Both the position numbers and the translations under genes were made by a program. Below the pieces are notes generated by a model that did not search any database, was not told where the DNA came from, and saw only the letters and a list, made by a program, of their open reading frames with translations. This document shows, in pieces, positions 46,301-64,000 of a stretch of 64,000 nucleotides of DNA. Location of the stretch: contig OX335644.1 in NCBI GenBank assembly GCA_946894095.1, positions 18,643,595 to 18,707,594 of the forward strand. The letters are read 5' to 3'. This DNA is from Incurvaria masculella. Its lineage: Eukaryota > Arthropoda > Insecta > Lepidoptera > Incurvariidae. Position 1 is the first letter of the stretch; each line of letters starts with the position of its first letter.

Positions 46301-49300
46301 TCTAGTGCAACTGTTGGCTGCAGTAGCGACCTGGCGCCGTACATAGAGGAGGCGCTGCAGGAGCACTGGCTGCTCGGCTACCTGGAGTTGCTGCAGCGCC
46401 ACAAGCTGTGGAACCTCTGCACAGAGGTACGTTGCCACCTCTCTGCACTCTAGTGCAACTGTTGGCTGCAGTAGCGACCTGGCGCCGTACATAGAGGAGG
46501 CGCTGCAGGAGCACTGGCTGCTCGGCTACCTGGAGTTGCTGCAGCGCCACAAGCTGTGGAACCTCTGCACAGAGGTACGTTGCCACCTCTCTGCACTCTA
46601 GTGCAACTGTTGGCTGCAGTAGCGACCTGGCGCCGTACATAGAGGAGGCGCTGCAGGAGCACTGGCTGCTCGGCTACCTGGAGTTGCTGCAGCGCCACAA
46701 GCTGTGGAACCTCTGCACAGAGGTACGTTGCCACCTCTCTGCACTCTAGTGCAACTGTTGGCTGCAGTAGCGATCTGGCGCCGTACATCGAGGAGGCGCT
46801 GCAGGAGCACTGGCTGCTCGGCTACCTGGAGTTGCTGCAGCGCCACAAGCTGTGGAACCTCTGCACAGAGGTACGTTGCCACCTCTCTGCACTCTAGTGC
46901 AACTGTTGGCTGCAGTAGCGACCTGGCGCCGTACATAGAGAGGCGCTGCAGGAGCACTGGCTGCTCGGCTACCTGGAGTTGCTGCAGCGCCACAAGCTGT
47001 GGAACCTCTGCACAGAGGTACGTTGCCACCTCTCTGCACTCTAGTGCAACTGTTGGCTGCAGTAGCGACCTGGCGCCGTACATAGAGGAGGCGCTGCAGG
47101 AGCACTGGCTGCTCGGCTACCTGGAGTTGCTGCAGCGCCACAAGCTGTGGAACCTCTGCACAGAGGTACGTTGCCACCTCTCTGCACTCTAGTGCAACTG
47201 TTGGCTGCAGTAGCGACCTGGCGCCGTACATAGAGGAGGCGCTGCAGGAGCACTGGCTGCTCGGCTACCTGGAGCTGCTGCAGCGCCACAAGCTGTGGAA
47301 CCTCTGCACAGAGGTACGTTGCCACCTCTCTGCACTCTAGTGCAACTGTTGGCTGCAGTAGCGACCTGGCGCCGTACATAGAGGAGGCGCTGCAGGAGCA
47401 CTGGCTGCTCGGCTACCTGGAGTTGCTGCAGCGCCACAAGCTGTGGAACCTCTGCACAGAGGTACGTTGCCACCTCTCTGCACTCTAGTGCAACTGTTGG
47501 CTGCAGTAGCGACCTGGCGCCGTACATAGAGGAGGCGCTGCAGGAGCACTGGCTGCTCGGCTACCTGGAGTTGCTGCAGCACCACAAGCTGTGGAACCTC
47601 TGCACAGAGGTACGTTGCCACCTCTCTGCACTCTAGTGCAACTGTTGGCTGCAGTAGCGACCTGGCGCCGTACATAGAGGAGGCGCTGCAGGAGCACTGG
47701 CTGCTCGGCTACCTGGAGCTGCTGCAGCGCCACAAGCTGTGGAACCTCTGCACAGAGGTACGTTGCTACCTCTCTGCACTCTAGTGCAACTGTTGGCTGC
47801 AGTAGCGACCTGGCGCCGTACATAGAGGAGGCGCTGCAGGAGCACTGGCTGCTCGGCTACCTGGAGTTGCTGCAGCGCCACAAGCTGTGGAACCTCTGCA
47901 CAGAGGTACGTTGCCACCTCTCTGCACTCTAGTGCAACTGTTGGCTGCAGTAGCGACCTGGCGCCTGTAGCGTCCGCCGCGCCGCCTTATGACGTAACGA
48001 TACCAGGGGCGAGATTATCTTTTTGCATTGAGTGCGAGACAAGGACGCAACGGCATCGCTCCCAGCAAGGTGCGAGCGAGATGCTGCACCGGATCTCGGC
48101 ACTGGTGCACAAACAGCGCCGTTTGAGTTAAATTCGTTAGACACAAGACAAGGACGCAACAGCAGCGCTCCCAGCAAGGTGCAAGCGAGATGCTGCACCG
48201 GATCTCGCCACTGGGGCCTTAGCGACGCCGATTGGGAATGTCGAAACACGCGGCAATCCTCCGCCGCGCCGCCCGCGGGACACGGGCAGAAGCGGGCAGC
48301 ACCTTGAGACGCACGGTCGCGCCACGTGCTCCGACGAGTGCGGGTCCCGAGGCCGCGGAGTCAGGCGACATGAAAAAAATGTGAAAACTTTCGCTCCCAA
48401 AAGTTGGTTGAGCTGTCCGCGTACCACCCTTCGCGAATATCGGTGCGCCCGCCGTGCCGCCGTGTTCCGTATCCGTGTGAGCAGCCGGGCGTGATCTACT
48501 TCGAGGCCACACCCACGCCTTCCGATGTCTTCAGCCCGTGGACCAGCAGCCACAGCTTCCGCCGTGCCCTGTCACAGTCGCCGGTCCGACATCTTCAACA
48601 CGTAGACCCACCACCACAGCGTCGCCGTACGCCTGCTGGATCCCCGCACGGTACCTATACTCTAACGCCAGCCCCCCCCGGAGAAATCTACGATGAAACC
48701 GCAAAGAGCGTCTATCAGGACCACCCATTGAAGCAGGACACCGCCCATTCGACTACGCACGACCTCGGACCCACCCCGAGCTCCCGGCATGGAACCCCGG
48801 CCATTTGGATATTAGGTTAGGCTAAGGCCGTGTTAGAACACCGCCTTGATTGTTAATTATTTATAGTCTTCTTTGTGCTTCTAAATATAGGCTATTTTAG
48901 GTAGATGGTTAGATCGCCACAGCCCAATTTTCTTAATTTGTAGGTGTCTTAAATAGGACAATGCCAGGGTGTATTTTTGATTGTCTGTTTGTGTTTTGTG
49001 CCTCAAATGGTCTATAATTTATTACATCTTTTTTTGTACCTACTGTAGTCTGTTAATTCGCTATTCATCGATTCCCTACAAATTCACCCATTCCCAACCT
49101 GTGAACAGCCTCCCCCACACGCTGCAGAGCTGCCACCAAGTACATTCATGAGATCCCTCCTCTACACATCACACTTTATACACCGGCGTAACCACCTGGA
49201 TATCTTGTAGCCTAATTAGATTACAACGAACCAATCCCTGGGCCCTTGAAACCCTATATATGTCTGTCGGTCTGTCCGTGGCAACCACTCCTACTTACTC

Positions 49301-52300
49301 ATTTCTTCTAATGCATCACACCCTTTAAATTAACAAGGCTACAATTGGCACCCGAACTGGTTTATTTTAATTTCCTATTTGTATATATTAATTATATTTA
49401 TTTTATTATGGTACGCCTCACTTGTTTTATACACTACAAATTAACTCTCCATTTCAGCCCTGACGGTAAGCAAATAGCGAATTAACAAAACTGAATATTA
49501 AATGTGTCAATAACGAGTTGTGTCCACCAACGTAATAGGTATATAGGTACTTACGCACGTTATTTCATTCTAGAATATCGAGTCTTGCAATAGCGCACGA
49601 AGGCGGTAACTCTCGCTCTTATAGGTGTGCACTGTTTCCTTAGGTTTTTAGGTCATCATATATTGGAAGCCGAGAGCAGAGCATATTCTTTGTCTTTCTC
49701 TCATTTCTTATAAATATAGCTTATAGCACGTTGCGCGTGGACAAATCGCGAGCACGTGAGCACGCGACCGGCCAGTCCCGCGATCCGGAACTTCTTGGGT
49801 TAGTATGAAACAACGAAATATAAAAAACTGAAATGTGCTGTTTCATTTAAGTGTATAATTTTATGTGTTCTTGATGCTTATGTATTGTGTGTGTAAATAA
49901 CGTGTGTGAAATTTTTTTTTCTTCTCGCTTTATTCTCTTGCGTTGAACACGTAGGTTATATTTGGAAGTCAGGTTAACTACGTGCTTATTGTTAATCACT
50001 CGTTAAAACAAACCTTAATCTGTAGTTATCAGGCTTTCGTCTCGTTCGATCTAGTCGCGTGTCGCGTTAACGGAAATTTACGTAATTTTTTTTTAACTCA
50101 TTTTAAGTAAGTTATTATAGGTACTACAAAATGGAAAGCCAGGACCATTCCGTGTGCATTGACATGCCAGAGGACCAATTAATGATGTATGACAATCAAT
50201 CCATAAATTCACAGTCGGAGGTTAATGTTGTAACACGTAGTGGTGGTGATTATGGACCCAGTTTTTTTTCCTTGGATAACGATTCCAACCAGTCATCTTC
50301 AAGTACCGTGGTAAAACCAGAAGGTCTCCACGAAAATTGTGTGTTCAACAAACATTACTACAACTTATCGTCCTGGAATCTAAAATATAGTGGTGAAACA
50401 GATGTACGTGAATTCATTGCCCGTGTCGAAGAGCTTACTTATGCGCGGAAATCTAACTATGACATCGTACTGAGATGTTTCATTGATTTGTTGTCGGGCA
50501 CTGCTTTGAAATGGTTCCGTACCGTGAGGGATGGAGTTACGAATTGGGACCAGCTTAAGAAAGCCTTGTTAGAGGAGTACGATAATATCGACTACGTTTT
50601 CGACACGGAATCCCGTATTCGCTCGTTAAAACAAAAACCTAACCAGAAGTTGTCAGATTTTGTAACAGATGTGAATGATTTGGCAAATAAAATCAAGGGT
50701 CAAATTTCCGATATCATGCTTTTCGAAATAATAAAACGAAATATGTTACCTAAGTACAATCAATGTCTGATTTACGGTACGATTAAAAATACTTGCGACC
50801 TTCTGGCGTATGGTAAGAAAATTGAACGTTTTAATAATGAGGCCCCCTTCAGTAATATCAAATCAGAGGTGTCCAAAGTTAACAGTTATATTCCTAAAGC
50901 CGAGACAGTGTCGACTTCAAACGCAAACGCTTGTCTCAAATGTAAAAATACGGGCCATTCTTTTAAAAACTGCCCGAATATTTTAATACCTATCTGCTTT
51001 GACTGCGGCAAGCTAAATGTCACGTCCAAAAATTGTCCCACATGTGCCGCGAAAGGTAACCAAAATTCGAGGTCTACGCCTCAGCCCCACTCTCGGTTCA
51101 CATCTCGTGCTGAAGCGTCACACCAACGCAGCGGACAACAATACCCGCCGTGGTATAACAATAATGCAGGCCAATTTAGTGTTAGGCAACAGAATCCTCC
51201 AACTTATATTAACAACGCCAACAATAACAATTTTAATGGCGGTCAATATCCTCGTTTTAGGCCAGTCTATTCAGGCCAATACAATAACTCTTACCGCCCT
51301 AGGGGTCAGCAATACCGACCTTATTTTCCGAACGCGAGTCACCCCCCGGCGACTCACTTTCACTCATCGAACTACGCCGATAGCGCGCGCGAGCTGCCGC
51401 ATAACAATATTCGAGCGATCGAGGCCCCCCCATCCCCCCCTCAATCTTCCGCTTCTCATACAAAAAACGGGTAAACGCACCGGCGACTTATACCTCCTCG
51501 GAAGAATGGCATGACTGGTTAAAATTTGTTCATGACTTTCCGAAAGTTAGCCCGGTGCTATCAAACCAACATGGCGATAGGAGGCCTTACGTTCATTTCA
51601 AGTTAAATAATAAGGATTTTACAGCTCTATTAGATAGTGGAGCCGAGATAAATGTGTTTGGTAATAATTCACATCTTGAAATACTGAATATGGGATATAC
51701 TTTAGACAAGTCCAAAATTTGTTCCGCCTCTACGGCAGACGGGACTAAACAATTTAGTCCAGGCTCAATCCATTGTAATATCGTGGTCGACGGCATTGAA
51801 ATTCCACTTACTTTTGAAGTTATTCCAGAAATTAAATCTGATTGCATTTTAGGCACAGAATTTTGGGAAAAGTCCGGTCTATCAAAAAAAATTTCCGGCT
51901 GTATAAATAAAAAAATCACTTTCCCCATTCCGTCAGAATTTCAGATTTCTTCATTAAACATTGATGGGGCCATTAAAAAAATTAAAGATATTATTTCCAG
52001 CTTAGATATCATTAAAAGTAAAATTTCTAGCTTTAACAGCCCCCGTTCGAGCAAACATTATAAGTTGTTGGATGAATCACTTACTAAGTTATTGTTAGCT
52101 TTGGACGACATTCCGTCTAATAATAACCCGGACATTAAGTCGGCCCGCAAAATAGCCGTCGCTTCTGTGCAAGAGTCAATAGATGTCTTAGAACGCAAAG
52201 CGTATCGGCCGAATTCTCCCCCGCCCACCCTCCCTACGTACGTGCCGCTCGCGTCGGTCGGTGAAACCAAGCCTTCTTCCGGAGCGCTCAATGCCACACA

Positions 52301-55300
52301 TCGCGCTCAGAGCGCACAGCCCCCGCATTCTGTTTCTAACGCGCAACAGCTGCATTCTATTTCTAACTCGAGTAATTGTAAACTTTCTCCAGATGAACAA
52401 TTAATATTAAATAAAACGATAGAAAAGTTTGAGTCCATATCTTTTGAAAAATGTGGCCTAGGTCGAACGCATCTTCTTGAATATGAAATTGATACGGAAG
52501 GTCCTCCAATCAAACAAAGGTTCTATCGCATGTCACCCTACAAACAAAAGTTAGTGGACCAATTAATAGATGAAATGATAGACTTGGATGTTCTGGAACC
52601 ATCATCGTCACCCTGGGCCAGTCCTGTGTTAGTAGTACCCAAGAAGGACAACTCCTTCCGCCTTTGCATGGACTCTCGTAAACTAAACGCTGTTACAAAA
52701 AAATGTAGTTATCCTCTCCCTCGCATAGATAACATTCTTGATAATTTAAAGGACGCAAAATATATTTCTTCCATTGACTTATCTAAGGCATTTCTTCAGC
52801 TCCCTCTGGCAGAATCGGCTAAGGAAAAGACAGCGATTATCTCACAGGGCCGAGGCTTATTACAATTTAAGGTGGTCCCTTTTGGGCTATCTAACGCACC
52901 CCAGAATTTACAGCGCCTGGTCGATGCGTTACTACCAGGTGCAGAATTCGATGACCATGTGTTCGGTTATCTAGACGACCTAATTATAATTTCCAACAAT
53001 TTTGCAGACCATATTTCTTACCTTGACAAAGTTTACGAACGTTTACATTTCGCTAACCTAACAGTTAACCTAAAGAAGTGTGAATTTCTAAAATCTGAGC
53101 TGAAATATCTTGGTTACGTCATAAACGAGTTCGGCTTAAAGACTGACCCAGCCAAAGTGGAGGCAGTGAAAAACTTTCCAACACCCAAATGTGTCAAAGA
53201 TGTACGCAGTTTCTTAGGACTAGCTTCCTACTACCGCCGTTTCATCAAGAATTTCTCTACTATTGCGGCGCCCCTGTCCAATCTCACAAGTTCCATCTCT
53301 GAAAAATATTCAAAATTTAATTGGACACCTGAGGCAGAGGCAGCCTTCGTAAAATTAAAATCCGCCCTCACTTCAGCCCCAGTTTTATGTGTTCCCAATT
53401 TTGAAGCCCCCTTTTTCCTCCACTGTGATGCAAGTTTAGTGGGAATTGGTTCAGCAGTTGTACAAAAGGACGCAAATTTTCAGGAACACCCCGTAGCTTA
53501 CTATTCGAGAACGCTAACAAAACAAGAGCAAGGTTTTTCTACCACCGAAAGGGAATTACTTAGTATTGTGGAAGCTACCACACATTTTAGACATTACCTA
53601 GAAGGAACTCATTTCACGATTGTGACTGACCATGAAAGCTTGAAATGGTTATATAAACTCGAGAACCCCACGGGCAGGCTCGCCCGTTGGTCTACTAGGC
53701 TCTCGCAATTCTCCTTTGATATCGTCCACAAGAAAGGCAAACTCCATGTTGTCCCGGACGCGTTGTCACGTATTAAGATCGAAAGTGTAAACTCATCCAA
53801 CCCAAACGTTCCTATAACTGATGAGTGGTTTTTGAAAATAAAAAATAGTATACAAAAATCACCCGCTAGTTACCCGAACTTTAGGTTGGAAGACGATAAG
53901 CTCTTTCGTTTTTGCAAACCTAAATTCAATCTTTTAAATTCATTTTCATGGAAAGAAGTTATTCCCGCTGACCATATTAAACAGCTAGTAACTGCTACTC
54001 ACGAGAGCCCTCTATCGGCACACCTTGGCCCATTTAAATGTTTTAAAAAGTTACAACTGAATTATTACTGGCCCAACATGTTTCCTTCAATCAAATCAAT
54101 CTTAAGTTCGTGTGAAGTTTGTTTGGCATTTAAAGCTAATAATCAGCTACCCCATGGTAAAATGTTATTTCAGAAGAAGGTCTACGCTCCAATGCAAACA
54201 TTAAGTTGCGATCTCATTGGTCCTCTGCCGAGGTCTTATTCAGGACACGCATACTTGCTTACTGTAGTTGACATTTTCTCCAAATTTGTATGGTTATGCC
54301 CACTTAGAAAAGCCAATAGTAAGTCAATAATTAAATTCATTGAAAATGAGATTTTCCTAGTCTATGGCGTGCCATATTGTATGATAAGTGATAATGGCGT
54401 GCAGTTCGTCTCTAACGAGTTTCAGGCACTTTTAAAAAGGTATAATATCCCTAAATTTTTCAAAAATTGTGTCTATTTCCCACAAAACAATCCAGTGGAA
54501 AGACACAATCGTACCATTGAATTAGCCATTGCTTCTTATGTTGAGACAGACCATAGAAACTGGACTAAAAATTTACCTAAGATTCAGGCAGCTTTAAATA
54601 GCCATGTCAGCTTAGCCCATGGGTTTTCACCCAATTTTGTAATGACAGGTAGAGAACTCATCTTCGATGGTCGATTCCATAAATTTGCAGATTTCACTAA
54701 ATTAGAGGAGTTAATTATCGATGGTCGCGACGAATGGACCACTAGCTTAAAATCATTGGCAAGCGTTTTTCATCAAATCCAAGCGAACCTGACTCAAGCA
54801 TATCAAGCTAATGCCAAACGCTACAACCTTCGTCGTTCAGTGATACATTTCAATGTAGGTGACATAGTCTGGCGTCGATCCCATGTTCAATCGGACGCCG
54901 CTAAATTCTTTTCAAATAAATTAGCCCCTCGTTTTATTAAATCTGTGGTCCTTGAGAAAAAATCTGAAAATACATACATTTTGGGCAACATGGATGGTTC
55001 CAAGGCAGGCCTAATACATGTGAGTGATATTATTAAATACTAAAAAAAAAAATTAATTAAAACTTTTGTTGAACTGGTTTGCATTTCTTTGATATATTTG
55101 GTCATAAATTTAAACAATAACTTTAAGTAACAATAAGTTACAAAATTTTTAAATGGTTAAATTCTCTATTAAATTGTATCTTGTGTCACATGCCCTAAAA
55201 AGGAGCCAGGTGTCAAGGGATACATGGATGACGGTAATTCTTGGAGAAGTTTTTTTAGTAAAACAAGCTATACTCCAATAGTTAGGTTAGGGTCAGTCGT

Positions 55301-58300
55301 GCGCGGTTGTTTTTTTGGAATATTTTTCGAACGCACGTTAATATCTAAAGCCTTATTGAAAAAATATCCCGTGAACGGTATTGGCAAGGGAATTCACGTT
55401 AATAAATAAAAAGCCCTATCCTTGCTCACGGACGGTTACGTGGGAATCCGTGTTATAAATCTAAGCCTTATCCCGCATCTAGGTGTTCGGTCACAAATCA
55501 TGCCGACACACTACCTAGGTTAGATTCGTTTTGGTATGTTTATTTAAGTTTTAGTATATGTCTTGTTCTTGGAAAATTTTGTCTTTGGAAAAAAAATATA
55601 TTTTGTCTTTTAAAAAAAAATGTGCTTGTGTCACAATGTACTATTGGGTACACGTGTGTCCTGGGCGATATGGAACGCGGTCGAGTTAACGTTCTTTGTT
55701 ATAAATTAAAGCCTTATCGACTCACCGGTGCGCGGTTTTTTATGGTATTTTTGAAACGCACGTTAAACGCCCAAGCCTTATTCAAAATATCCCGCAGGAC
55801 GGTTGGTTGAGAATCCTGCGTAGCAAAAATAAAGCCTTATCTCTCAAACTTATGTGTACGGTCACTCTTGTGTCGTCACAGCTGGAGGCGGTTGTAGAAC
55901 CTCCATATAAATATAAGCCTTATCTACACTCCACATTGTTCGAATCCGTTAAAATCAGTTCGACAAATTCTTAGTTAGGTTAGGGTCTTTCACAGACGTC
56001 CGCGAAGCAAACCAGCCTCGCGTTCGTCGGGTTTTTTTTTTCTTCTCTCTCTTTCTTTTACCTCCACCTCACTTAACCTCACCCCTCACCCTATTCCCTA
56101 GCAAGCTTGCGCCCTCCCACCCTAACACCAACCACCTTACCCAACCCAGTATGATAGATAATTTAAAAGAAAGGATACGACAGGATAAGTGAATGATGAT
56201 GTAAGCAAGTGGTTCCTACCCTTTTCCCCATATCTGTCCTCTGTCACTAGTAAGTGGTCTCAACCGAGTCACTTACGTAGACAAGGCATACAGCGCATTC
56301 ACCGCGCTTTATTTTATGTTAGTTCTTTTGGTTATTCTCTATTTTTTTTTTCTCTTTTCTTTTTTTTTCTTTTAACAGCTATAGTGTACTGTAACGGGCA
56401 ACACGTCGCGTCAGACACGTTCAGCTGAAAACACATAATGGTGTATTTCGTGATAGATGCCGCCTCCCATGAGGGGGGCAAAATTCTATAGAATCTCTAG
56501 GTGCAGGCCATACCCCATTTAACGCTTCTCGACAGGCGGTGTACTAGGCACCTACCTAGGGCCAAGATGAGACACGAGACAGTTCGCGTGTCTTGATCTG
56601 AAGGGGTTTTACGAGTTCTCACTCTGAGGCTCACCAATTACAACCAGTTTTTTATGTTAAGTCGGCATAATAAGACTGGTTGGGTTGCATTATTTAGTTT
56701 TAAGTTCCAAACAACCATACCCTCCCAACACATGTTCTCTGTACATACCTGTATATAAAATACTTATAAGTCGTATTTAGATAAAATTTACTCTAGGTAA
56801 GAACAAGGATATGACATTTATAAAGCGTCCCTTATAAAAAGGCACTTATTATTTTGGATTTTGAGCGTCTACGGGTTAAATGTTAATGACGTTTCCCATA
56901 GGATTCTATTCGGTTAATGTAAACCATTTTGAAGACTGCTGAGTCTTATTTGCCAAATCATTTCATGTGTCTCAAAACGCGTTCGTGAGTGTTGGTAAAA
57001 CTTTCGTATTAATTGTACAATTGTAAATATTGCTAATTTTAGTTTAAACTTAAAATTAATTTATAGGCGCACAATAGCGACCAATAAGAGTAGGAACTCT
57101 AAATAAATATGGCATAGTGAGCCACTGAACATATAAACTCTCGGAAAGACAAAATTAAACACGGATTTTGAGAAAATTCAAATTGTATTAAGATATAAAC
57201 ATGCTAATTATATAAATACAATTAAAATACTTAAGCGTAGGTACTTAGTTAGTTAGTTAGTTCGCGTTCAGAGTGACACATCTTAAGTAGGATGTCGCTA
57301 GACACATTATAGTATTTAGAAAGTATACGGAATGTTAGAAATATAATGTCCGGAACACACAGTGGTTCCTACTATCGCTTTAATAATGCTGGTGGACACA
57401 ACTTCGCTTAATAATGTTTTCTCATACTTGTCTTAATCCTTATTATTGAAAATACACTCAAGGACAAAACTTCCTTTATTGATGTTTTTTTTTCTTAAAT
57501 TATTTGTCTTAATTCTTATTATCGAAAGTACACTCATAGATACAACTTCTTTAGTGATGTTTATTTTTATACGTATCTCAATTTTCCTTATTATTGAAAG
57601 TACACTCAAGGACACAACTTGTTCTCTTTATGCCTTGCTTTTCTTGTTTTTATTTAAAAAAAAAAGACATTCATGAATATAATTTCGGCTAGTAATGTTT
57701 CTTCTCATACTCGTCTTATACTTTTTATTAATAATGAAAGTCAACTTAAAGGATATAAGTCATTGGGCTGTGGCTTCCATAGGATTGTAAATATGTGTTA
57801 GCTTGTACATGTGTGTAAATATTTTACTGATTGATAAAAATGTTACTTATATGTTAATGTCATAACACTGTGTTCGATATTAATTCTATTTCTGTTGTCA
57901 TTTAGATGTTTTAGCATTCCATTGGGCTTGGCTTATAGTATTGTAAACCTGTTGAATGTCTAGAAATTTAAAACAGTTTTGCCAATCGATATCACATTGA
58001 TGTAAAGATTATCATTAGTAACATTTTGGTTAGCTTCAGTATTAATTATTACTTTTGCACTGTCAATTATAGTTCAGCAATTAATGTTATAGTCACTGTG
58101 ACATTCTGGTCACTTTGTTAAATGTCTAGGGTACTTAAATTCTTTTTTTTTTTGCTTGTTTTTTTTTTGTTTTTTAAGTAACCGGGTATTGTAGCGTCCG
58201 CCGCGCCGCCTTATGACGTAACGATACCAGGGGCGAGATTATCTTTTTGCATTGAGTGCGAGACAAGGACGCAACGGCATCGCTCCCAGCAAGGTGCGAG

Positions 58301-61300
58301 CGAGATGCTGCACCGGATCTCGGCACTGGTGCACAAACAGCGCCGTTTGAGTTAAATTCGTTAGACACAAGACAAGGACGCAACAGCAGCGCTCCCAGCA
58401 AGGTGCAAGCGAGATGCTGCACCGGATCTCGCCACTGGGGCCTTAGCGACGCCGATTGGGAATGTCGAAACACGCGGCAATCCTCCGCCGCGCCGCCCGC
58501 GGGACACGGGCAGAAGCGGGCAGCACCTTGAGACGCACGGTCGCGCCACGTGCTCCGACGAGTGCGGGTCCCGAGGCCGCGGAGTCAGGCGACATGAAAA
58601 AAATGTGAAAACTTTCGCTCCCAAAAGTTGGTTGAGCTGTCCGCGTACCACCCTTCGCGAATATCGGTGCGCCCGCCGTGCCGCCGTGTTCCGTATCCGT
58701 GTGAGCAGCCGGGCGTGATCTACTTCGAGGCCACACCCACGCCTTCCGATGTCTTCAGCCCGTGGACCAGCAGCCACAGCTTCCGCCGTGCCCTGTCACA
58801 GTCGCCGGTCCGACATCTTCAACACGTAGACCCACCACCACAGCGTCGCCGTACGCCTGCTGGATCCCCGCACGGTACCTATACTCTAACGCCAGCCCCC
58901 CCCGGAGAAATCTACGATGAAACCGCAAAGAGCGTCTATCAGGACCACCCATTGAAGCAGGACACCGCCCATTCGACTACGCACGACCTCGGACCCACCC
59001 CGAGCTCCCGGCATGGAACCCCGGCCATTTGGATATTAGGTTAGGCTAAGGCCGTGTTAGAACACCGCCTTGATTGTTAATTATTTATAGTCTTCTTTGT
59101 GCTTCTAAATATAGGCTATTTTAGGTAGATGGTTAGATCGCCACAGCCCAATTTTCTTAATTTGTAGGTGTCTTAAATAGGACAATGCCAGGGTGTATTT
59201 TTGATTGTCTGTTTGTGTTTTGTGCCTCAAATGGTCTATAATTTATTACATCTTTTTTTGTACCTACTGTAGTCTGTTAATTCGCTATTCATCGATTCCC
59301 TACAAATTCACCCATTCCCAACCTGTGAACAGCCTCCCCCACACGCTGCAGAGCTGCCACCAAGTACATTCATGAGATCCCTCCTCTACACATCACACTT
59401 TATACACCGGCGTAACCACCTGGATATCTTGTAGCCTAATTAGATTACAACGAACCAATCCCTGGGCCCTTGAAACCCTATATATGTCTGTCGGTCTGTC
59501 CGTGGCAACCACTCCTACTTACTCATTTCTTCTAATGCATCACACCCTTTAAATTAACAAGGCTACACGCCGTACATAGAGGAGGCGCTGCAGGAGCACT
59601 GGCTGCTCGGCTACCTGGAGTTGCTGCAGCGCCACAAGCTGTGGAACCTCTGCACAGAGGTACGTTGCCACCTCTCTGCACTCTAGTGCAACTGTTGGCT
59701 GCAGGAGCGACCTGGCGCCGTACGCCGAGGAGGTGCTGCAGGAGCGTTGGCTGCTCGGCTGTGGAACCTCTGCACAGAGGTACCTTTCCACCTCTCTGCA
59801 CTCTAATAATAATAATAATAAAAAATTAAATTATTTATTTTCCCACACAACAGTACAATAATTGGTAAACAGTGACAAATACAATTAAAAAGAAAAACAG
59901 TAGTGGGAACCAAGTAAAGAAATATCAATCATGCGATGTGTGATGTGTGAAAAATGGCTGTGGCTCAAGTGGATGTCAGCAAGGGCGAACCTGCTGGCCG
60001 CTTGTCTTCTGCTCCAGTTCCTTTCCGCTTCCTTTTCTCTAGTGCAACTGTTGGATGCAGGAGCGACCTGGCGCCGAACACTGTCTGCTCGGCTATCTGG
60101 AGCTCCTGCAGTGCCACAGGACCTCAAATGTCTGTATATGTCTCTCTGTATGACGCCACTTTTGAATTTATAGGCAACCTGGCCCCAGGAATCGAGGAGT
60201 TTTAAATACACCTACTCAGAAATTATGAAACTTCATTCAATCTTGTTGGTTTAAGTTGTCCCTTTGTTACTTCATTAAGTACACAAATGTACCCTACCTC
60301 TTTCCTGGTTAAAAAAAATTTTAGTCAAAGGAATTTGATGGGGTGCGTAAAGTTTGGAAAATGACCAAATACTTAAGATTATTAGATAAGGCTGACCGGA
60401 AAGTATTTCTGCAGATAATTCGTTGGTCGTGGGTGGGCAGCGTGTGGCAGCTGTCGCAGCAGTCGACATCGGTGCACGTAGCTTGCGGGCGCTGCGGGCG
60501 GCGGCTGCCCCGCGCCGGCCATGCGCCCTGCGACCGCTGCCAGGCGCAGCCCGCGCTCTGCGCCGTCTGCCACCAGGTGAGCCTCCCGCCGACTGAGGGC
60601 ACTACTGTCGGCACATCTAGCCACTAATGTTGCTTGTCCGGTGTTAGATGGTGCGCCGGCTGTTCGCGTGGTGCCAAGGAGGCGTGCACGGCGGCCACCT
60701 GCAGCACATGCAGCGCTGGATAGAGACAGGCAGTGTCCAGCCGGCTAGGGGCACTACTTGCTTATCCAGTGTCAGTTGGTTCGCGGGCTGTTCGCATGGT
60801 CTCAGGGATGTGCGCACGGCGGCAACCTGCCGCACATGCAGCGCTGGATAGAGACACAAGCAGTGTCCTGCCGGCTAGGGGCACTACTGTCGACACACGT
60901 AGCCACTAATGTTGCTTGTCCGGTGTCAGGTGGTTCGCGGGATGTTCGCGTGGTGTCAGTGATGCGCTCACGGCGGCCACCTGCAGCACATGCAGCGCTG
61001 GATAGAGACACAAGCAGTGTCCTGCTAGCTAGGGGCACTACTGTCGACACACGTAGCCCCTAATGTTGCTTGTCCGGTGTCAGGTGGTTCGCGGACTGTT
61101 CGCGTGGTGCCAAGGATGCGCGCACGGCGACCACCTGTAGAACATGCAGCGCTGGATGGAGACACACAAGTTGTGTCCGGCCGGCTGGGGGCACTTCTGT
61201 CTACACACGTAGCCACTAATGTTGCTTGTCCGGTGTCAGGTGGTGCGTGCGCTGTTCGTATGGTGCCAGGGATGCGCGCACGGCGGCCACCTGCAGCACA

Positions 61301-61524
61301 TGCAGCGCTGGATGGAGACACACAAGTAGTGTTCGGCCGGCTGGGGGCGCTACTGTCGACACACGTAGCCACTAATGTTGTTTTTCCGGTGTCAGGTGGT
61401 GCGCGGGCTGTTCGCGTGGTGCCAGGGCTGCGCTCACGGCGGCCACCTGCAGCACATGCAGCGCTGGATGGAGACCCACAAGCAGTGTCCGGCCGGCTGT
61501 GGGCACTACTGTCAGTACACGTAG
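25372..61524 (+). CDS. WDR24: WDR24, GATOR2 complex subunit, 17 exons
   Basis: Exons: 25372-25486, 26524-26640, 27359-27474, 28463-28569, 29229-29442, 30846-30934, 31422-31581, 33314-33483, 34840-35059, 36247-36443, 37395-37528, 38704-38865, 39354-39505, 40446-40657, 42330-42432, 60415-60576, 61396-61524. Phases agree throughout, giving 852 codons (human WDR24 has 790). Exons 1-8 encode the WD40 propeller: [87 protein letters not shown], then MFRDASHPV. Exons 9-13 encode a helical and low-complexity linker with the family motif LPQEAFPLR. Exons 14-15 encode [13 protein letters not shown] and HKLWNL. Exons 16-17 encode the C-terminal zinc/RING-like module ([39 protein letters not shown]). GATOR2 relieves GATOR1 inhibition of TORC1 at the lysosome. 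Exons 8, 15 and 17 are tandemly amplified. Confidence 0.94.
30440..30640 (+). repeat. Interspersed repeat, possibly Helitron-like 5' end
   Basis: Starts 'tactaatattataaacgcga' and runs through 'gtaactctgtctgttgggtt'. This type of sequence is common at the 5' end of lepidopteran Helitron-like and related repeats. Class assignment is from memory and unverified. A comparable 'tctgtctgttggactgtctg' segment lies at about 63690-63760. Confidence 0.35.
30690..30815 (-). mobile_element. SINE 3' fragment, minus orientation
   Basis: Complement of the SINE 3' body: 'cctgacatggatggctaata', 'gaattaggtgccatgccagg', 'ccttatgagcacggccacac'. It ends 30 bp before WDR24 exon 6. Confidence 0.65.
30975..31110 (+). 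pseudogene. Decayed duplicate of WDR24 exon 6
   Basis: About 130 bp after exon 6 the exon recurs in damaged form: 'atattcacgtaatgccatca' against 'atattcacggaaagccatca', then an inserted stretch, then 'ctctatagcatcggtctgcc' and 'cacatcaagtggagtctcta'. The donor (gtaagt) has become 'caaagt' and stops are present. The downstream intron block with 'actacacgaactcctta' is duplicated too. Confidence 0.75.
32420..32822 (-). mobile_element. Full-length tRNA-derived SINE, minus orientation
   Basis: On the minus strand the head reads 'gtagcctagtggcgcgggga' (A box) and 'cccgggttcaataccaac' (a good B box). It is followed by the common SINE body and a 3' A-run (T-run near 32410-32425 on plus). It is the best-preserved copy in the window and lies in WDR24 intron 7. 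Confidence 0.85.
33314..33777 (+). repeat. WDR24 exon 8 tandem repeat, 201-bp unit, about 2.3 copies
   Basis: Exon 8 (33314-33483) is followed by a second complete copy (33515-33684) and a truncated third (33716-33777), exactly 201 bp apart. Each complete copy has a 170-nt exon, acceptor (cgccag) and donor (gtacct), with only 31 bases between copies, too short for a normal intron. 201 is a multiple of three, and the three copies plus spacers form one open frame. Copy 1 has the ancestral-looking MFRDASHPV; copy 2 has [12 protein letters not shown]. Confidence 0.88.
33868..34085 (-). mobile_element. LINE 3'-end fragment
   Basis: The minus-strand frame encodes a non-LTR retrotransposon C-terminus: [20 protein letters not shown], then [18 protein letters not shown]. 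The element's 3' end is an AT-rich simple tail. It is the uninterrupted counterpart of the fragment at 19960-20790. Confidence 0.7.
34134..34664 (-). mobile_element. MITE, GGTGGCCCAACCCG family (copy 3)
   Basis: The ends GGTGGCCCAACCCG and CGGGTTGGGCCACC lie in the reverse orientation to the other two copies. The right target site is TTAA and the left has mutated to CTAA. The interior aligns with the copies at 18040 and 22123. It lies in WDR24 intron 8. Confidence 0.8.
35210..35338 (+). mobile_element. 'CGTATTCAGAG' MITE
   Basis: Starts 'cagtcgtattcagagaggac' and ends with a mutated inverted end 'cagaatagtgctgtt'. The internal 'ctaaccatacaaaaaccggt' block is as in the copy at 24660. It lies in WDR24 intron 9. 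Confidence 0.65.
36510..36757 (-). mobile_element. SINE 3' fragment, minus orientation
   Basis: Complement of the SINE body: 'tacatggattgctaatacca', 'gaactaggtgctatgccagg', 'tgacctggatggaaaatatg', 'cattgccgcttcgaacatcg'. It lies in WDR24 intron 10. Confidence 0.65.
36763..37330. mobile_element. Two adjoining truncated MITEs
   Basis: 36763-37040 matches the left and middle of the 20291-20626 element (gtctcagttgtcacctaaat onward) but lacks its right end. It is followed at about 37052 by the left end of the GGCCCGTAAGC foldback MITE, which itself loses its right end near 37330. One element probably inserted in, and partly deleted, the other. Confidence 0.55.
37572..37700 (+). pseudogene. Decayed duplicate of WDR24 exon 11
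   Basis: About 149 bp downstream of exon 11 the block 'cacgcagaccatctacatac' through 'gctcacctgacggtaaactg' and 'tcctccaacctgcaacaaac' repeats the exon's 3' half, its donor and the first intron bases. The exon's 5' half is degenerate and carries a TAG, so the copy could not be a coding exon. Confidence 0.8.
39995..40345 (-). mobile_element. LINE 3'-end fragment
   Basis: The complement of this region resembles the LINE tail at 33868-34085: 'gtacgccaggacctcttaag', 'ggctgcgaaaaccatg', 'ggccggccaggtgc'. A short matching block (ccggccaggtgcccggctgc) recurs at 42163-42260. Frames are broken. Confidence 0.6.
41121..41166 (-). ncRNA. Hammerhead-ribozyme-like motif (sense to the Penelope ORF)
   Basis: Read on the minus strand: helix I TGGCC, core CTGACGA, one extra T, helix II GCTTCC/GGAAGC closed by a 6-nt loop, core GAAA, a minimal helix III (CATG), then GTC at the expected cleavage position and GGCCA closing helix I. 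All invariant core positions (CUGANGA, GAAA, UH before cleavage) fit a type I minimal hammerhead, the kind known from Penelope-like pseudo-LTRs. The additional U between A9 and helix II is unusual. No activity was tested. Confidence 0.72.
41205..41792 (-). pseudogene. GIY-YIG endonuclease domain of a truncated Penelope-like ORF
   Basis: The minus-strand frame (open back to 41975, but the part above 41793 is pseudo-LTR read-through) contains [18 protein letters not shown], then [20 protein letters not shown] with GVY and YIG spaced as in GIY-YIG nucleases. R (near RVTEH), E, H and a late N/E-containing block ([19 protein letters not shown]) follow. In Penelope-like elements this domain nicks target DNA and follows the RT. 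Here the RT is missing, so it is a remnant. The frame is intact to its stop at 41205. Confidence 0.8.
41794..41839 (+). ncRNA. Hammerhead-ribozyme-like motif (second, inverted copy)
   Basis: Identical 46-nt motif on the plus strand: helix I TGGCC/GGCCA, core CTGACGA, extra T, helix II GCTTCC/GGAAGC, GAAA, CATG, GTC. It lies in the inverted pseudo-LTR. This copy is in the sense orientation of WDR24 transcription, so it would be present in WDR24 intron 14 RNA. Confidence 0.72.
42330..47965 (+). repeat. WDR24 exon-15 tandem array: 38 full units of 148 bp plus the start of unit 39
   Basis: Each unit is a 103-nt exon copy ([20 protein letters not shown]... HKLWNLCTE) plus a 45-nt spacer with a gtacgt donor and ggctgcag acceptor. 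The first copy (42330-42432) starts G/AGC; later copies start T/AGC. Donors run from 42432 to 47905: 5,473 bp, which equals 37 x 148 minus 3. That matches three units (near 44127, 45456 and 46936) with a 1-bp loss after 'catagag'. One unit (near 46212) has GAG to TAG. The remaining 34 encode intact exon with only minor changes (QRHK or QHHK). Units fall into two main types: gatctg...catcgag and gacctg...catagag. The minus-strand and alternative-frame ORFs here are by-products of the repeat. Confidence 0.95.
47966..49343 (+). repeat. 5' LTR
   Basis: TG...CA ends. A direct internal duplication of about 80 bp (near 48030-48113 and 48140-48220, each with 'gacaaggacgcaac' and 'gagatgctgcaccggatctc') lies in the U3 part. 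A TATA-like 'ccctatatatg' is near 49251-49261, so the transcription start and R region probably lie in the last 100 bp. ORFs in the LTR have no recognisable motif. Confidence 0.93.
49346..49360 (+). other. Primer binding site
   Basis: TGGCACCCGAACTGG begins two bases after the 5' LTR. It is one mismatch from TGGCGCCCGAAC, complementary to the 3' end of tRNA-Lys in many retroelements. The exact primer tRNA cannot be decided from the window. Confidence 0.7.
50131..51474 (+). CDS. Gag polyprotein of the LTR retrotransposon
   Basis: 447 codons. A Retrotrans_gag-like capsid domain lies at about residues 75-210 ([50 protein letters not shown]). The nucleocapsid region has one canonical zinc knuckle, [14 protein letters not shown] (CX2CX4HX4C). 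A second box, [14 protein letters not shown], has Val in place of His. The C-terminal quarter is rich in Asn, Gln, Tyr and Arg. Gag forms the particle and packages element RNA. The ATG follows a long leader. The stop (51472-51474) comes two codons after a slippery heptamer. Confidence 0.92.
   Translation: MESQDHSVCIDMPEDQLMMYDNQSINSQSEVNVVTRSGGDYGPSFFSLDNDSNQSSSSTVVKPEGLHENCVFNKHYYNLSSWNLKYSGETDVREFIARVEELTYARKSNYDIVLRCFIDLLSGTALKWFRTVRDGVTNWDQLKKALLEEYDNIDYVFDTESRIRSLKQKPNQKLSDFVTDVNDLANKIKGQISDIMLFEIIKRNMLPKYNQCLIYGTIKNTCDLLAYGKKIERFNNEAPFSNIKSEVSKVNSYIPKAETVSTSNANACLKCKNTGHSFKNCPNILIPICFDCGKLNVTSKNCPTCAAKGNQNSRSTPQPHSRFTSRAEASHQRSGQQYPPWYNNNAGQFSVRQQNPPTYINNANNNNFNGGQYPRFRPVYSGQYNNSYRPRGQQYRPYFPNASHPPATHFHSSNYADSARELPHNNIRAIEAPPSPPQSSASHTKNG
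51462..51468 (+). promoter_or_regulatory. Canonical -1 ribosomal frameshift heptamer (AAAAAAC)
   Basis: In the gag frame the codons read aca aaa aac ggg taa, so A_AAA_AAC is in the exact register for tandem -1 slippage. After slippage, reading continues from 51468 in the frame that is open through all of pol. The same heptamer is used at gag-pro junctions of several retroviruses. A downstream pseudoknot or stem was not clearly identified by eye. Confidence 0.85.
51468..55043 (+). CDS. Pol polyprotein (protease, RT, RNase H, integrase)
   Basis: The frame is open from the slippery site to TAA at 55043, with no needed ATG. An internal GTG at 51555 marks a 1,162-codon part. Domains counted from 51555: aspartic protease [13 protein letters not shown] (27-29 DSG); RT with [49 protein letters not shown] and YLDDLIII (near 472); RNase H with [27 protein letters not shown] and TDHESLKWL; integrase zinc region [18 protein letters not shown]...CEVC and catalytic core with CDLIGP, SDNGVQF and [11 protein letters not shown] (D, D, E); and a C-terminal [12 protein letters not shown] module. 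No chromodomain is seen. All catalytic residues are present, so it is probably functional. Confidence 0.95.
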   Translation, partial: RVNAPATYTSSEEWHDWLKFVHDFPKVSPVLSNQHGDRRPYVHFKLNNKDFTALLDSGAEINVFGNNSHLEILNMGYTLDKSKICSASTADGTKQFSPGSIHCNIVVDGIEIPLTFEVIPEIKSDCILGTEFWEKSGLSKKISGCINKKITFPIPSEFQISSLNIDGAIKKIKDIISSLDIIKSKISSFNSPRSSKHYKLLDESLTKLLLALDDIPSNNNPDIKSARKIAVASVQESIDVLERKAYRPNSPPPTLPTYVPLASVGETKPSSGALNATHRAQSAQPPHSVSNAQQLHSISNSSNCKLSPDEQLILNKTIEKFESISFEKCGLGRTHLLEYEIDTEGPPIKQRFYRMSPYKQKLVDQLIDEMIDLDVLEPSSSPWASPVLVVPKKDNSFRLCMDSRKLNAVTKKCSYPLPRIDNILDNLKDAKYISSIDLSKAFLQLPLAESAKEKTAIISQGRGLLQFKVVPFGLSNAPQNLQRLVDALLPGAEFDDHVFGYLDDLIIISNNFADHISYLDKVYERLHFANLTVNLKKCEFLKSELKYLGYVINEFGLKTDPAKVEAVKNFPTPKCVKDVRSFLGLASYYRRFIKNFSTIAAPLSNLTSSISEKYSKFNWTPEAEAAFVKLKSALTSAPVLCVPNFEAPFFLHCDASLVGIGSAVVQKDANFQEHPVAYYSRTLTKQEQGFSTTERELLSIVEATTHFRHYLEGTHFTIVTDHESLKWLYKLENPTGRLARWSTRLSQFSFDIVHKKGKLHVVPDALSRIKIESVNSSNPNVPITDEWFLKIKNSIQKSPASYPNFRLEDDKLFRFCKPKFNLLNSFSWKEVIPADHIKQLVTATHESPLSAHLGPFKCFKKLQLNYYWPNMFPSIKSILSSCEVCLAFKANNQLPHGKMLFQKKVYAPMQTLSCDLIGPLPRSYSGHAYLLTVVDIFSKFVWLCPLRKANSKSIIKFIENEIFLVYGVPYCMISDNGVQFVSNEFQALLKRYNIPKFFKNCVYFPQNNPVERHNRTIELAIASYVETDHRNWTKNLPKIQAALNSHVSLAHGFSPNFVMTGRELIFDGRFHKFADFTKLEELIIDGRDEWTTSLKSLASVFHQIQANLTQAYQANAKRYNLRRSVIHFNVGDIVWRRSHVQSDAAKFFSNKLAPRFIKSVVLEKKSENTYILGNMDGSKAGLIHVSDIIKY
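55298..55923 (+). other. Array of seven hairpin-plus-AAGCCTTAT units in the retrotransposon 3' UTR
   Basis: Stems by position: 55298-55303/55332-55337, 55370-55375/55393-55398, 55427-55432/55447-55452, 55673-55677/55690-55694, 55728-55732/55757-55761, 55793-55799/55814-55820, 55883-55888/55900-55905. The stem sequences differ (CGTGCG, CGTGAA, CACGGA, GAACG, GTGCG, CGCAGGA, TGGAGG) but each pairs perfectly. All seven loops begin CGGT and end AA. An A/T-rich spacer and AAGCCTTAT (AAGCCCTAT once) follow each. A separate long hairpin with CTAGGT/ACCTAG ends lies at 55479-55518 between units 3 and 4. I know no named family. The pattern suggests a conserved RNA structure in the element's transcript. 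Confidence 0.7.
57381..57745 (+). repeat. Degenerate tandem repeat in the retrotransposon 3' region
   Basis: About five imperfect copies of a 65-90-bp unit, each with 'taatgtt(t)', a T-rich stretch, 'cttattattgaaagtacact' (or close) and 'caaggacacaactt'. It is non-coding. Confidence 0.6.
58190..59567 (+). repeat. 3' LTR
   Basis: Same length as the 5' LTR at a constant offset of 10,224, and I see no differences between the two. The bases just before it are T-rich, then 'taagtaaccgggtat', rather than a plus-strand polypurine tract. Confidence 0.93.
59568..60125 (+). pseudogene. Remaining and decayed copies of WDR24 exon 15 beyond the LTR element
   Basis: 59568-59659 is the 3' part of unit 39, complete with donor gtacgt. 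59705-59779 is a copy that starts gcag/GAGCGACC like the founder exon but lacks about 27 nt and ends in a changed donor (gtacct). 60043-60125 is a more diverged fragment (gcaggagcgacctggcgccg, then drift). An (aat)n run and AT-rich insert separate the last two. Confidence 0.85.
60648..61524 (+). repeat. WDR24 terminal exon (exon 17) tandem array, six copies
   Basis: Copies start at 60648, 60776, 60930, 61084, 61240 and 61396. The spacings are 128, 154, 154, 156 and 156 bp. Each has the 'ccggtgtcag' type acceptor and the LFAWCQGC...[11 protein letters not shown] segment. Damage: copy 1 lacks a good core and runs to TAG; copy 2 has a 1-nt loss; copy 3 has TGA right after the CQ codons; copy 4 has TAG replacing CAG in the HLQ motif; copy 5 ends at HK-TAG before the last zinc ligands. 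Only copy 6 (61396-61524) encodes the full [12 protein letters not shown]...CPAGCGHYC end with TAG. Confidence 0.92.
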
Positions 61525-64000
61525 CGACAACTTATACATAAATCACTTTCATAATGATTATTTCTTTGTATATCTGAATCAAGTAGCTTCGGCTTTTCGG
61601 TTGTTTTGATATGACTAACTCCTGTTTTCACCACTTCCACCTAGCCGAAATCCCTTATTTAACTTTCGGTTAAATTCCATATTTACATCGTGTAGCCGAA
61701 AGATTACTTTGGGATATTTGTAGCTGAAGGTGGTGGAACCAGGCGTAAATCAAGTTGTATACTCTTGGTGCTAATAATTTTATACATTTTCTATGCATTT
61801 TGTGAAGAAAAGGAAGTCAAAATAAAAGAAACACATTCTCTTCTCATAAACCAAAGAAATTCAATAGATTTAAAAATGGAATTAAAATGGTCAGAAGATG
61901 AATTTAACGAGAGTTTTGAGTGTTAAAAATGTGTATCCATCTTGGATTATGCTCGTGAGTTTCGCGTCAAACTAATATCACTGTGGTCTCGTACACACCG
62001 ATCTATCAAATTATTGTCTTATGAGCCAAATGTATGAAGTTATAATGTAATTGTGATTGTGTGGTGCGGTTGTGACTAGAGGGAGGCCCTCTAGACACAA
62101 CCTAGAGCTACATCGTTATGAATTGAGCTGGACCTTTTAAGCAGTAATGCTGCAACCATCTGAAATGACCATATTTCGTGCTGTTACTATTTAATCATTT
62201 TTTATATTTAACCGATGCGACATTAACGTATGTTAATGATTTGAGGTTATTCAACGACATCTCCATCGATGCATTTTAATAAGATGTTGAAAATATTTAG
62301 AAAACGTTTTTGGTCATGACATTCAAAGCAGCATTCGAACCTGTGACGTTTGGATTATCCCAAAAATTACATCACCAACTAATACTATGAGAATATACTC
62401 AAATCTACAAAATGCTTGCCCTGTGAAGAATCCTTCGAATTCCAATCCTGATTCCGAAGAATGTCACAATTTTTTTTTCAGATTTGTTCAAAATTTGATG
62501 CTTCAATGTAAATGTCGTTGGATAATCTCAAATCAGTAACTATTTATTGCATCACCTAACATGTAATTCTGTGTGCTGGCAAGGTGCTGCAACATATGAA
62601 TATAATTTCTCAAATAAATTAAGCAATAGCTAGGTCTTCCTAATAGAAGATTGCTAGTTCGTGTATGATAAAGATGACTATATATGTCGCTGCCGGATTG
62701 TTATATAACTCAGCCACGTAATATAATTAGGCTTCTCACGAAAAAAGACACCATTATCTGTTGAGCTTATTATCATTCAGCCATTTTACAAAGGGGCCAA
62801 GAATGATTTAAGCAAACTCAATGATGAAACACATTCTGCAATACGACTAGCTAAGCAAATCTTGCTTTGTTTTGTAAGGATCGCTTAGCCACCTTATTTA
62901 GAAAAAATACTTGCTTGACCGTTCAAGGTCATTCTGCCACCGTCGCCTCCGTACACCCTCAACACTTGACAACGCTTTGTAAAAAAATAAAGAAGTGACG
63001 ATATTGGGGCCTTATTATTAATATTATTATTAGTAAACTGTTATATAAAATGGCTTATGGTTTCGAAATTCAGCTACAATCCAGCTTCGATATATTCAAC
63101 GACCAGTGTACAGTGTGCATTTTTATAGTAATTAATTCTATTTTAAATAAAGGAAATGTGATAAAATTTTAGAAGGATTAACCAAGTTCATATTTTTTAT
63201 GTTTTATACAATAAGTGAAATATTACAAAAAAAATAAATAAATGAGTATTGAAATCAAAATATGGTTTCATTTTATTGAGTGTCGTTGTCTTCTTCAGGA
63301 CATAAATGTGTTGACACGTACCCGGAGCAAGCAGACGGGGCCACCCCGGTTATATTGCTGGATATCCTGAAAATTCCATCTCAATCTACAGGCCAATTTA
63401 ATTTTTTTGTTATAGAGCGGGTATCGCAATTAGAAGACGCAACAGCCACGGAAGGCATGTTTACTGGTTCAAGTCCAGCCTTGCACTGTGTGTATATTTC
63501 CAAAGTTTTTGACAGTTTTCTTTCTTTTACATAATTACATATTACTTCACAGTCGATGTAATATGTATTAACTTTAGTTTATAAAAATCGACGTAGTGAG
63601 TGTATGCATATTTGTCTAATTTGAGAGCATAATATAAATATATAAAAATCACTATCACTATCACAACAACATCACTACATATTATAAACCAAAGTCCCCC
63701 TCCGCGTCTATCTGTCTGTTGGACTGTCTGAACGCGATAGACTCGAAAACTACCGAACGGATTTTCATAAGGTTTTCACCAATGGACGCAGTGATTCAAG
63801 TGGAAGTTTTATGTGCATAGGTAATTCATGTTTTGTGTAAATTGGTTGAAATATGATGACAATTGTTAACGATGTCGAAAAAAAACCGGCCAAGTGCGAG
63901 TCGGACTTGCACACGAAGGGTTCCGTACCATCAACACCAAAAAATCACGTTTTTTGTATGGGACCCCCCTTTAATTTTTATTATTTTTTTATTTTACCTA
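61525..64000. other. Downstream intergenic region
   Basis: AT-rich. It contains the presumed WDR24 3' UTR and no supportable exon. 63670-63850 resembles a common insect interspersed repeat (tctgtctgttggactgtctg, ctaccgaacggattttcata). 63880-63975 is another repeat start (ccggccaagtgcgagtcgga) of a type very common in lepidopteran DNA, whose class I cannot assign. Confidence 0.5.

What the first reader, a model, noticed from the sequence alone, without database searches (positions are those of the whole stretch)
55298..55923. Candidate new structured-RNA family: tandem CGGT-loop hairpins with a constant downstream motif
Seven units in about 630 bp have different stem sequences, each perfectly complementary, with invariant loop ends (CGGT at the 5' side, AA at the 3' side) and AAGCCTTAT-type motifs 7-13 nt downstream. 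Variable stems with conserved pairing are the signature of selection on RNA shape. The loop GGU(U) could pair with the (A)GCC of the downstream motif, giving a pseudoknot. Roles in packaging, RNA export or translation are possible. I know no named motif that matches.
Basis: partly seen in the sequence, partly recalled or inferred. Interest (0 to 1): 0.92.

Follow-up and report, generated by a model that had tools for sequence, protein, structure and literature searches.

The report
Tandem RNA pseudoknots in a retrotransposon
The tail of a young insect-type retrotransposon carries a row of seven small RNA knots whose pairing stems keep changing while staying complementary, a sign that the RNA shape itself is kept by selection for a still unproven task.

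Summary
Window 55298-55928 lies in the 3' UTR of a young Ty3/gypsy-type LTR element (LTRs 100% identical). Each of seven units has the reported variable hairpin (helix a, loop CGGT...AA, then AAGCCTTAT). The loop's 3' half also pairs with bases just after AAGCC (helix b): an H-type pseudoknot. In the seven units the own pairing is the best of 5,040 permutations for b and tied best for a. A model containing helix a but not b scored six further distinct units above 17 bits in related families; six of six carry helix b. In 14 units from five families, 0 of 200,000 permutations reach the observed pairing for either helix. Strict descriptor: 14 hits on sense strands, 0 antisense, 1 in 116 kb of control DNA. 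Rfam gives no match. Most likely a multivalent protein docking array for full-length element RNA (packaging or export); function is inferred. Against: nested folding energies are unremarkable, and 12 of 15 further families sampled lack strict units.

The parts
47966..49343 (+). 5' LTR (1378 bp), identical to the 3' LTR
   Evidence: self-BLAST 100%; CGCC on both outer sides of the element
50131..51474 (+). gag (Retrotrans_gag)
   Evidence: Pfam PF03732, E 7.5e-10
51555..55043 (+). pol (protease, RT, RNase H, integrase); in the -1 frame after A AAA AAC at 51462
   Evidence: Pfam; frame and slippery site
55226..55279 (+). decayed unit U0: CGGT 55232, helix b TTGGAG 55241-55246 / CTCCAA 55273-55278, helix a lost, AAGCT in place of AAGCC; resembles unit B4 of family B in its flanking text
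   Evidence: sequence by eye
55298..55363 (+). unit U1: helix a 55298-55303/55332-55337, CGGT 55304, helix b 55323-55330/55356-55363, AAGCC 55348 (T-rich; longer other registers for b exist)
55370..55426 (+). unit U2: helix a 55370-55375/55393-55398, CGGT 55376, helix b 55383-55390/55419-55426, AAGCCC 55411
55427..55476 (+). unit U3: helix a 55427-55432/55447-55452, CGGT 55433, helix b 55440-55445/55471-55476, AAGCC 55463
55480..55518 (+). plain hairpin between units (CTAGGTGTTCGG...CCGACACACTACCTAG), no helix b seen
   Evidence: sequence by eye
55672..55723 (+). unit U4: helix a 55672-55677/55690-55695, CGGT 55678, helix b 55683-55687/55719-55723 (starts 2 nt later than in U1-U3, U5, U7), AAGCC 55709
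   Evidence: not in the strict descriptor list
55728..55787 (+). unit U5: helix a 55728-55732/55757-55761, CGGT 55733, helix b 55749-55755/55781-55787, AAGCC 55773
55793..55847 (+). unit U6: helix a 55793-55799/55814-55820, CGGT 55800, helix b 55807-55812/55842-55847 (2 nt later, as in U4; a longer register overlapping a' exists), AAGCC 55832
   Evidence: not in the strict descriptor list
55883..55928 (+). unit U7: helix a 55883-55888/55900-55905, CGGT 55889, helix b 55893-55898/55923-55928, AAGCC 55915
58190..59567 (+). 3' LTR; the array lies in the 3.1-kb stretch between pol and this LTR

Best explanation
Each unit is an H-type RNA pseudoknot in the 3' UTR of the element's full-length RNA: helix a (5-7 bp), loop CGGN + 0-15 nt, helix b (5-8 bp), zero to two A, helix a', an A/U-rich linker ending AAGCC + 1-5 nt, helix b'. 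Shown by sequence: both helices, their covariation, the constant loop letters, the sense strand and the place after pol. Inferred: the constant letters CGGN and AAGCC(U)UA form one recognised surface at the helix junction. The array then works as a multivalent landing site for a protein that handles full-length element RNA, most likely the element's own Gag with its zinc knuckle during packaging, or a host export factor. [quoted passage not shown] Structure about 0.95 likely; the docking role about 0.4.
For: Own-partner pairing is the best of 5040 permutations for b and tied best for a in seven units. 0 of 200,000 permutations for a or b in 14 units from five families; the own partner is also the best single partner in 13 of 14 (a) and 9 of 14 (b). 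Two to five pair types at each of the first six positions of both helices in 15 units: 172 Watson-Crick, 9 G-U, 0 broken (helices were taken as paired stretches, so 'no broken pair' is by construction). Model R1, without helix b, scored B2, B3, B4, G1, M2, Q2 above 17 bits; 6 of 6 have helix b of at least 5 pairs ending within 2 nt of a'. M1 (6.9 bits, E 1.1) was recognised only with b in view, and Q1 only by the descriptor. Strict descriptor: 14 sense, 0 antisense, 1 in 116 kb x 2 strands. Pol of carrier families is as low as 41% identical over a 497-aa piece. Gag has one CCHC knuckle by eye. FMDV pseudoknots: at least one is needed to recover virus (PMC9203018, abstract). The zinc finger of Ty3 Gag is critical for packaging (PMC4974528, passages).
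Against: No test of function or binding. Nested folding of the region is not unusually stable, though crossing helices cannot both appear there. Outside families A and B, 3 of 15 families sampled (several of them close to each other) have strict units and 12 do not in the 1.1-2.3 kb read. Family N keeps a but has no clear b, family K has three 99-bp tandem copies with a but no b seen, O and P have a weak a. A second copy of B3 (L057) keeps b but has one broken pair in a. U4 and U6 start b' two letters later. Packaging signals of retroviruses are mostly 5' (recalled).
Confidence: 0.4

Rival explanations
1. Decay shield: the pseudoknots stall 5'-3' exonucleases or keep the UPF1 pathway off an mRNA with a long 3' UTR, like viral exonuclease-resistant RNAs or the stability element of Rous sarcoma virus.
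For: Pseudoknots whose first unit begins about 190-490 nt after the pol stop in A, B, G, M, Q; 3.1-kb 3' UTR; a stop between gag and pol. RSV stability element mentioned in passages of PMC10309623.
Against: No match to any Rfam family; no ring-forming three-way junction in the unit (resistant RNAs recalled to have one).
Confidence: 0.2
2. Constitutive export or localisation element for unspliced RNA, by a route other than direct protein docking as proposed above.
For: Sense-strand RNA element in the 3' UTR.
Against: No described transport element matched by Rfam search; whether the element's RNA is spliced was not tested.
Confidence: 0.15
3. Self-cleaving ribozymes.
For: Short pseudoknot with many constant unpaired letters.
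Against: Seven cutting units would destroy the element's own RNA template (reasoning); no match to any Rfam family.
Confidence: 0.05
4. Not an RNA element: decayed tandem DNA repeat with chance palindromes.
For: Some units arose by duplication (stretches of U1 and U5 76% identical over 55 nt); nested fold z-score not low.
Against: Two crossing helices covary in unrelated stem sequences over five families; strand bias 14 to 0; G-U pairs in the sense strand.
Confidence: 0.02

Closest known systems
Tandem pseudoknots of the foot-and-mouth disease virus 5' UTR (PMC9203018, abstract read)
   Same: Two to four small pseudoknots in tandem in a non-coding region of an RNA genome, variable copy number
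   Different: 5' UTR of a picornavirus, not the 3' UTR of an LTR element; loop letters not compared
Ty3 retrotransposon RNA (PMC11381356 and PMC4974528, passages read)
   Same: Same broad class of element (Ty3/gypsy); 3' UTR holds part of a bipartite primer site
   Different: The two predicted pseudoknots reported there lie in GAG and POL; no tandem array in the 3' UTR is described in the passages read
Viral exonuclease-resistant RNAs (recalled)
   Same: Pseudoknotted elements in 3' UTRs, sometimes in tandem
   Different: Those have a ring around a junction (recalled); no Rfam family matched here
Generic H-type pseudoknots (frameshift signals, preQ1 and SAM-II riboswitches; recalled)
   Same: Two crossing helices with an A-rich third loop
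   Different: No constant CGGN / AAGCC(U)UA pair of loops recalled; not at a frameshift site here

Membership tests
H-type pseudoknot | Hairpin stem whose loop pairs with bases downstream of the stem | tested here: met
   helices a and b cross in 7 of 7 units; permutation tests
H-type pseudoknot | Both helices form together in the molecule | not testable with these tools
   needs probing or a solved structure; nested folding picks a in some units and b in others
Any Rfam 15 family | Covariance-model score above the curated cut-off | tested here: not met
   0 matches in the window and in L056, L062, L071, L078; E up to 10 on 55040-56100 gives 2 matches far below their cut-offs, none over the units
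Ty3/gypsy LTR retrotransposon (host element) | LTRs, target-site duplication, gag, pol in order PR-RT-RH-INT | tested here: met
FMDV tandem pseudoknots | Located in a picornavirus 5' UTR | tested here: not met
   lies 3' of pol in an LTR element
Exonuclease-resistant RNA | Stops XRN1 in vitro | not testable with these tools
   no experiment possible
Retroelement packaging signal | Binds Gag/NC and directs RNA into particles | not testable with these tools
   no experiment possible

The most novel reading that the evidence does not exclude
At the junction of the two helices the first loop (CGGN, running away from the junction) and the end of the third loop (GCCN, running into it) lie side by side in the same direction and form a short parallel-stranded duplex C:G, G:C, G:C, N:N. 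The fourth letter covaries as an identical pair (U/U, A/A, G/G). This would be a pseudoknot locked by parallel loop-loop pairing. Basis: 13 of 14 units, plus A/A in family N. Exceptions: U2 (U/C, some copies U/A) and its relative B2 (U/C, not among the 14). Few independent changes, and CGG and GCC were required in part of the search.
Probability: 0.15. Interest if true: 0.88.

Novelty: new variant of a known kind. Interest (0 to 1): 0.7.

Why it matters
It would be a new RNA family, without a match in Rfam 15 as searched, carried by gypsy-type elements whose pol parts are as little as 41% identical. Outside yeast, cis-acting RNA signals of LTR retrotransposons are little mapped (my judgement, not searched). 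A compact, repeated pseudoknot with exact stem rules makes the question of which protein reads full-length retrotransposon RNA directly testable in vitro. The possible parallel loop-loop contact would interest structural biologists.

Tried and rejected
Rejected: known Rfam families. Rejected: a frameshift role (the array lies after pol; the slippery site is at 51462). Little gained: variation among 30 top-scoring copies of the window's family (0 of 176 helix sites vary, 3 of 222 other unit sites, 8 of 234 between units, 10 of 108 in the 5' flank; copies were chosen by similarity over this very stretch, so the contrast is biased). Led nowhere: relatives in viral contigs by pol, a pattern demanding a pyrimidine before CGGT (17 hits, 19 for the reversed pattern), MAFFT alignments that misplaced units (in the one used for the model, U4 and U7 are still shifted by a few columns), nested folding. 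Literature searches for such an array or contact: searches gave no listing whose title or shown start of abstract describes it; most of the listed papers were not opened.
Full report
What it lies in. The window is a stretch of a 552-Mb genome in 31 contigs. Two identical 1378-bp direct repeats at 47966-49343 and 58190-59567 bound an element that interrupts a 148-bp tandem array. The four letters CGCC stand on both outer sides. Between the LTRs are gag (50131-51474) and pol (51555-55043) with protease, RT, RNase H and integrase domains. Pol is in the -1 frame behind A AAA AAC. It is therefore a young Ty3/gypsy-type LTR retrotransposon. Among the 120 pol relatives listed, the only one shown with an organism is from the moth Plutella xylostella, 48% identical (P0035), so a moth-like host is likely but not proven. 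The finding lies in the 3.1 kb between pol and the 3' LTR, on the coding strand. Forty copies of this stretch were scored at 99-100% identity out of 161 candidates.

The observation. All seven units are as described: a stem of 5-7 unbroken pairs, CGGT opening the loop, AA closing it, and AAGCCTTAT (AAGCCCTAT once) 9-13 nt after the stem.

What was missed. In every unit 5-8 letters at the end of the loop, before the closing A or AA, are complementary to letters that begin 3 to 5 nt after AAGCC. For U1 and U6 longer alternative registers exist, and I took the one next to helix a'. Because unit stems are mostly unrelated, one can ask whether a loop pairs with its own tail rather than another unit's: the own pairing has the lowest total energy of all 5040 permutations for helix b, and ties for lowest in helix a. 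A stem whose loop pairs downstream is an H-type pseudoknot, so nested folding cannot show it. RNAfold chooses a in some units and b in others, and energies of units and region are ordinary.

Relatives. A covariance model of the seven units with helix a only (R1) was run on stretches 3' of pol in related families of the same genome, found by protein search. Family B: four units at 47.1, 34.3, 26.3 and 23.3 bits. B1 is U1 with one linker letter changed. B2 has a changed b' (CCTTTGC) that still pairs with GCAAGGG. B3 and B4 have other stems. In a second B copy (L057) B3 scores 17.9 bits, keeps b and has one broken pair in a. Family G: one unit, 35.4 bits, the same in three copies. Family M: 19.1 and 6.9 bits. 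Family Q: 17.4 bits, plus a second unit directly before it found by the descriptor only. The six distinct units above 17 bits outside the window's family (B2, B3, B4, G1, M2, Q2) all have helix b next to a' although the model had none. Lower R1 hits mostly do not: N 11.4-13.4 (a kept, b unclear), L061 12.7 and 9.8 (no), O/P 10.6 (weak a, 5-bp b by eye), K 7.8 (a kept, b not seen; three 99-bp tandem copies).

Descriptor and controls. A scan for helix a of at least 5, CGG, helix b of at least 5 ending 0-2 nt before a', and AAGCC with 1-3 letters before b' gave 14 hits on the sense strand of 20 stretches (30.8 kb): window 5 of its 7, B 4, G 1, M 2, Q 2. It gave 0 on the antisense strand and 1 in 116 kb of other DNA of this genome read on both strands (part of that control had been fetched with CGGT/AAGCC-type patterns, which makes it strict). 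A looser form gave 18 sense, 3 antisense, a mean of 1.55 in 20 shuffles (maximum 4), and 28 in the 116-kb control on both strands, that is about 3.7 per 30.8 kb. Outside families A and B, 5 hits among 250 CGG sites compare with 1 among 2237 in the control (Fisher 5.5e-5). Several of the later families were reached by following hits, and the requirements were set after seeing families A, B, G and M, so this figure is generous. Of 15 other families sampled (C to R without L; C/D, F/H and O/P are near relatives), 3 have strict units and 12 do not in the 1.1-2.3 kb read.

Covariation. In 14 different units of five families, 0 of 200,000 permutations reach the observed pairing energy for helix a (-92.8 against a mean of -26.0) or helix b (-104.2 against -47.2); the own partner is the best single partner in 13 of 14 (a) and 9 of 14 (b). 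Counting 15 units including B2, each of the first six positions of both helices shows two to five pair types. The pair next to CGG is purine-pyrimidine in 15 of 15. Carrier families differ widely: pol of A and Q is 41% identical over a 497-aa piece, M and Q 44%, G and Q 45%.

Third contact. But the fourth letter of CGGN equals the letter after GCC in 13 of 14 units (11 U/U, A/A in B4, G/G in Q1; U2 is U/C, and so is B2, which was not among the 14), and family N is also A/A. In an H-type pseudoknot the start of loop 1 and the end of loop 3 both lie at the junction and run the same way (established geometry, recalled). A parallel C:G, G:C, G:C, N:N contact is therefore possible. This rests on few changes and is put forward only as the novel case.

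Mechanism. Shown: two covarying helices, constant loop letters, sense strand, a place about 190-490 nt after the pol stop for the first unit in A, B, G, M and Q, and variable copy number. Inferred: a repeated binding surface. Gag, with a zinc knuckle, is the nearest candidate reader; the tandem pseudoknots of FMDV, at least one of which is needed to recover virus (PMC9203018, abstract), are the nearest analogue. Rivals are a decay shield, an export element and, unlikely for seven copies in one's own template, ribozymes.

Known or new. Rfam 15: nothing at gathering score in the window or in four relative stretches, and two matches far below their cut-offs at E up to 10 in 55040-56100. The Ty3 probing paper reports two predicted pseudoknots, in GAG and POL (PMC11381356, passages). 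Eight literature searches (listed in Tried and rejected) brought up no description of such an array in the listings seen. I place it as a new RNA family of a known fold class.

Noticed in passing
window 52011-52196 (pol residues 153-214): Pfam BAG domain (PF02179, E 3.4e-10) between protease and RT of pol, which seems unusual for a gypsy-type element.
   Followed up: no
window 42325-47965 and 59568-59760; 60758-61525: A 148-bp unit in about 38 tandem copies and a 156-bp unit in about 5; they look like tandemly duplicated exons of a host gene (GATOR2-like by recall; no Pfam match above cut-off). The element is inserted in the first array.
   Followed up: partly
window 51462-51468: A AAA AAC GGG TAA: likely -1 frameshift site between gag and pol.
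   Followed up: partly
window 17151-18039 and 18790-19678: Inverted repeat of 889 bp at 99.2% identity.
   Followed up: no
L080:918-1201: Family K has three 99-bp tandem copies with a CGGT hairpin and AAGCCT but a loop that by eye folds on itself rather than pairing downstream.
   Followed up: partly
L068 and L069, about 50-110: Families I and J share a different conserved hairpin with loop start CGG and a possible CGG/CCG pseudoknot just after pol, by eye.
   Followed up: no
window 55480-55518 and 55855-55880: Two plain hairpins with loop text GGTCAC lie inside the array, by eye.
   Followed up: no
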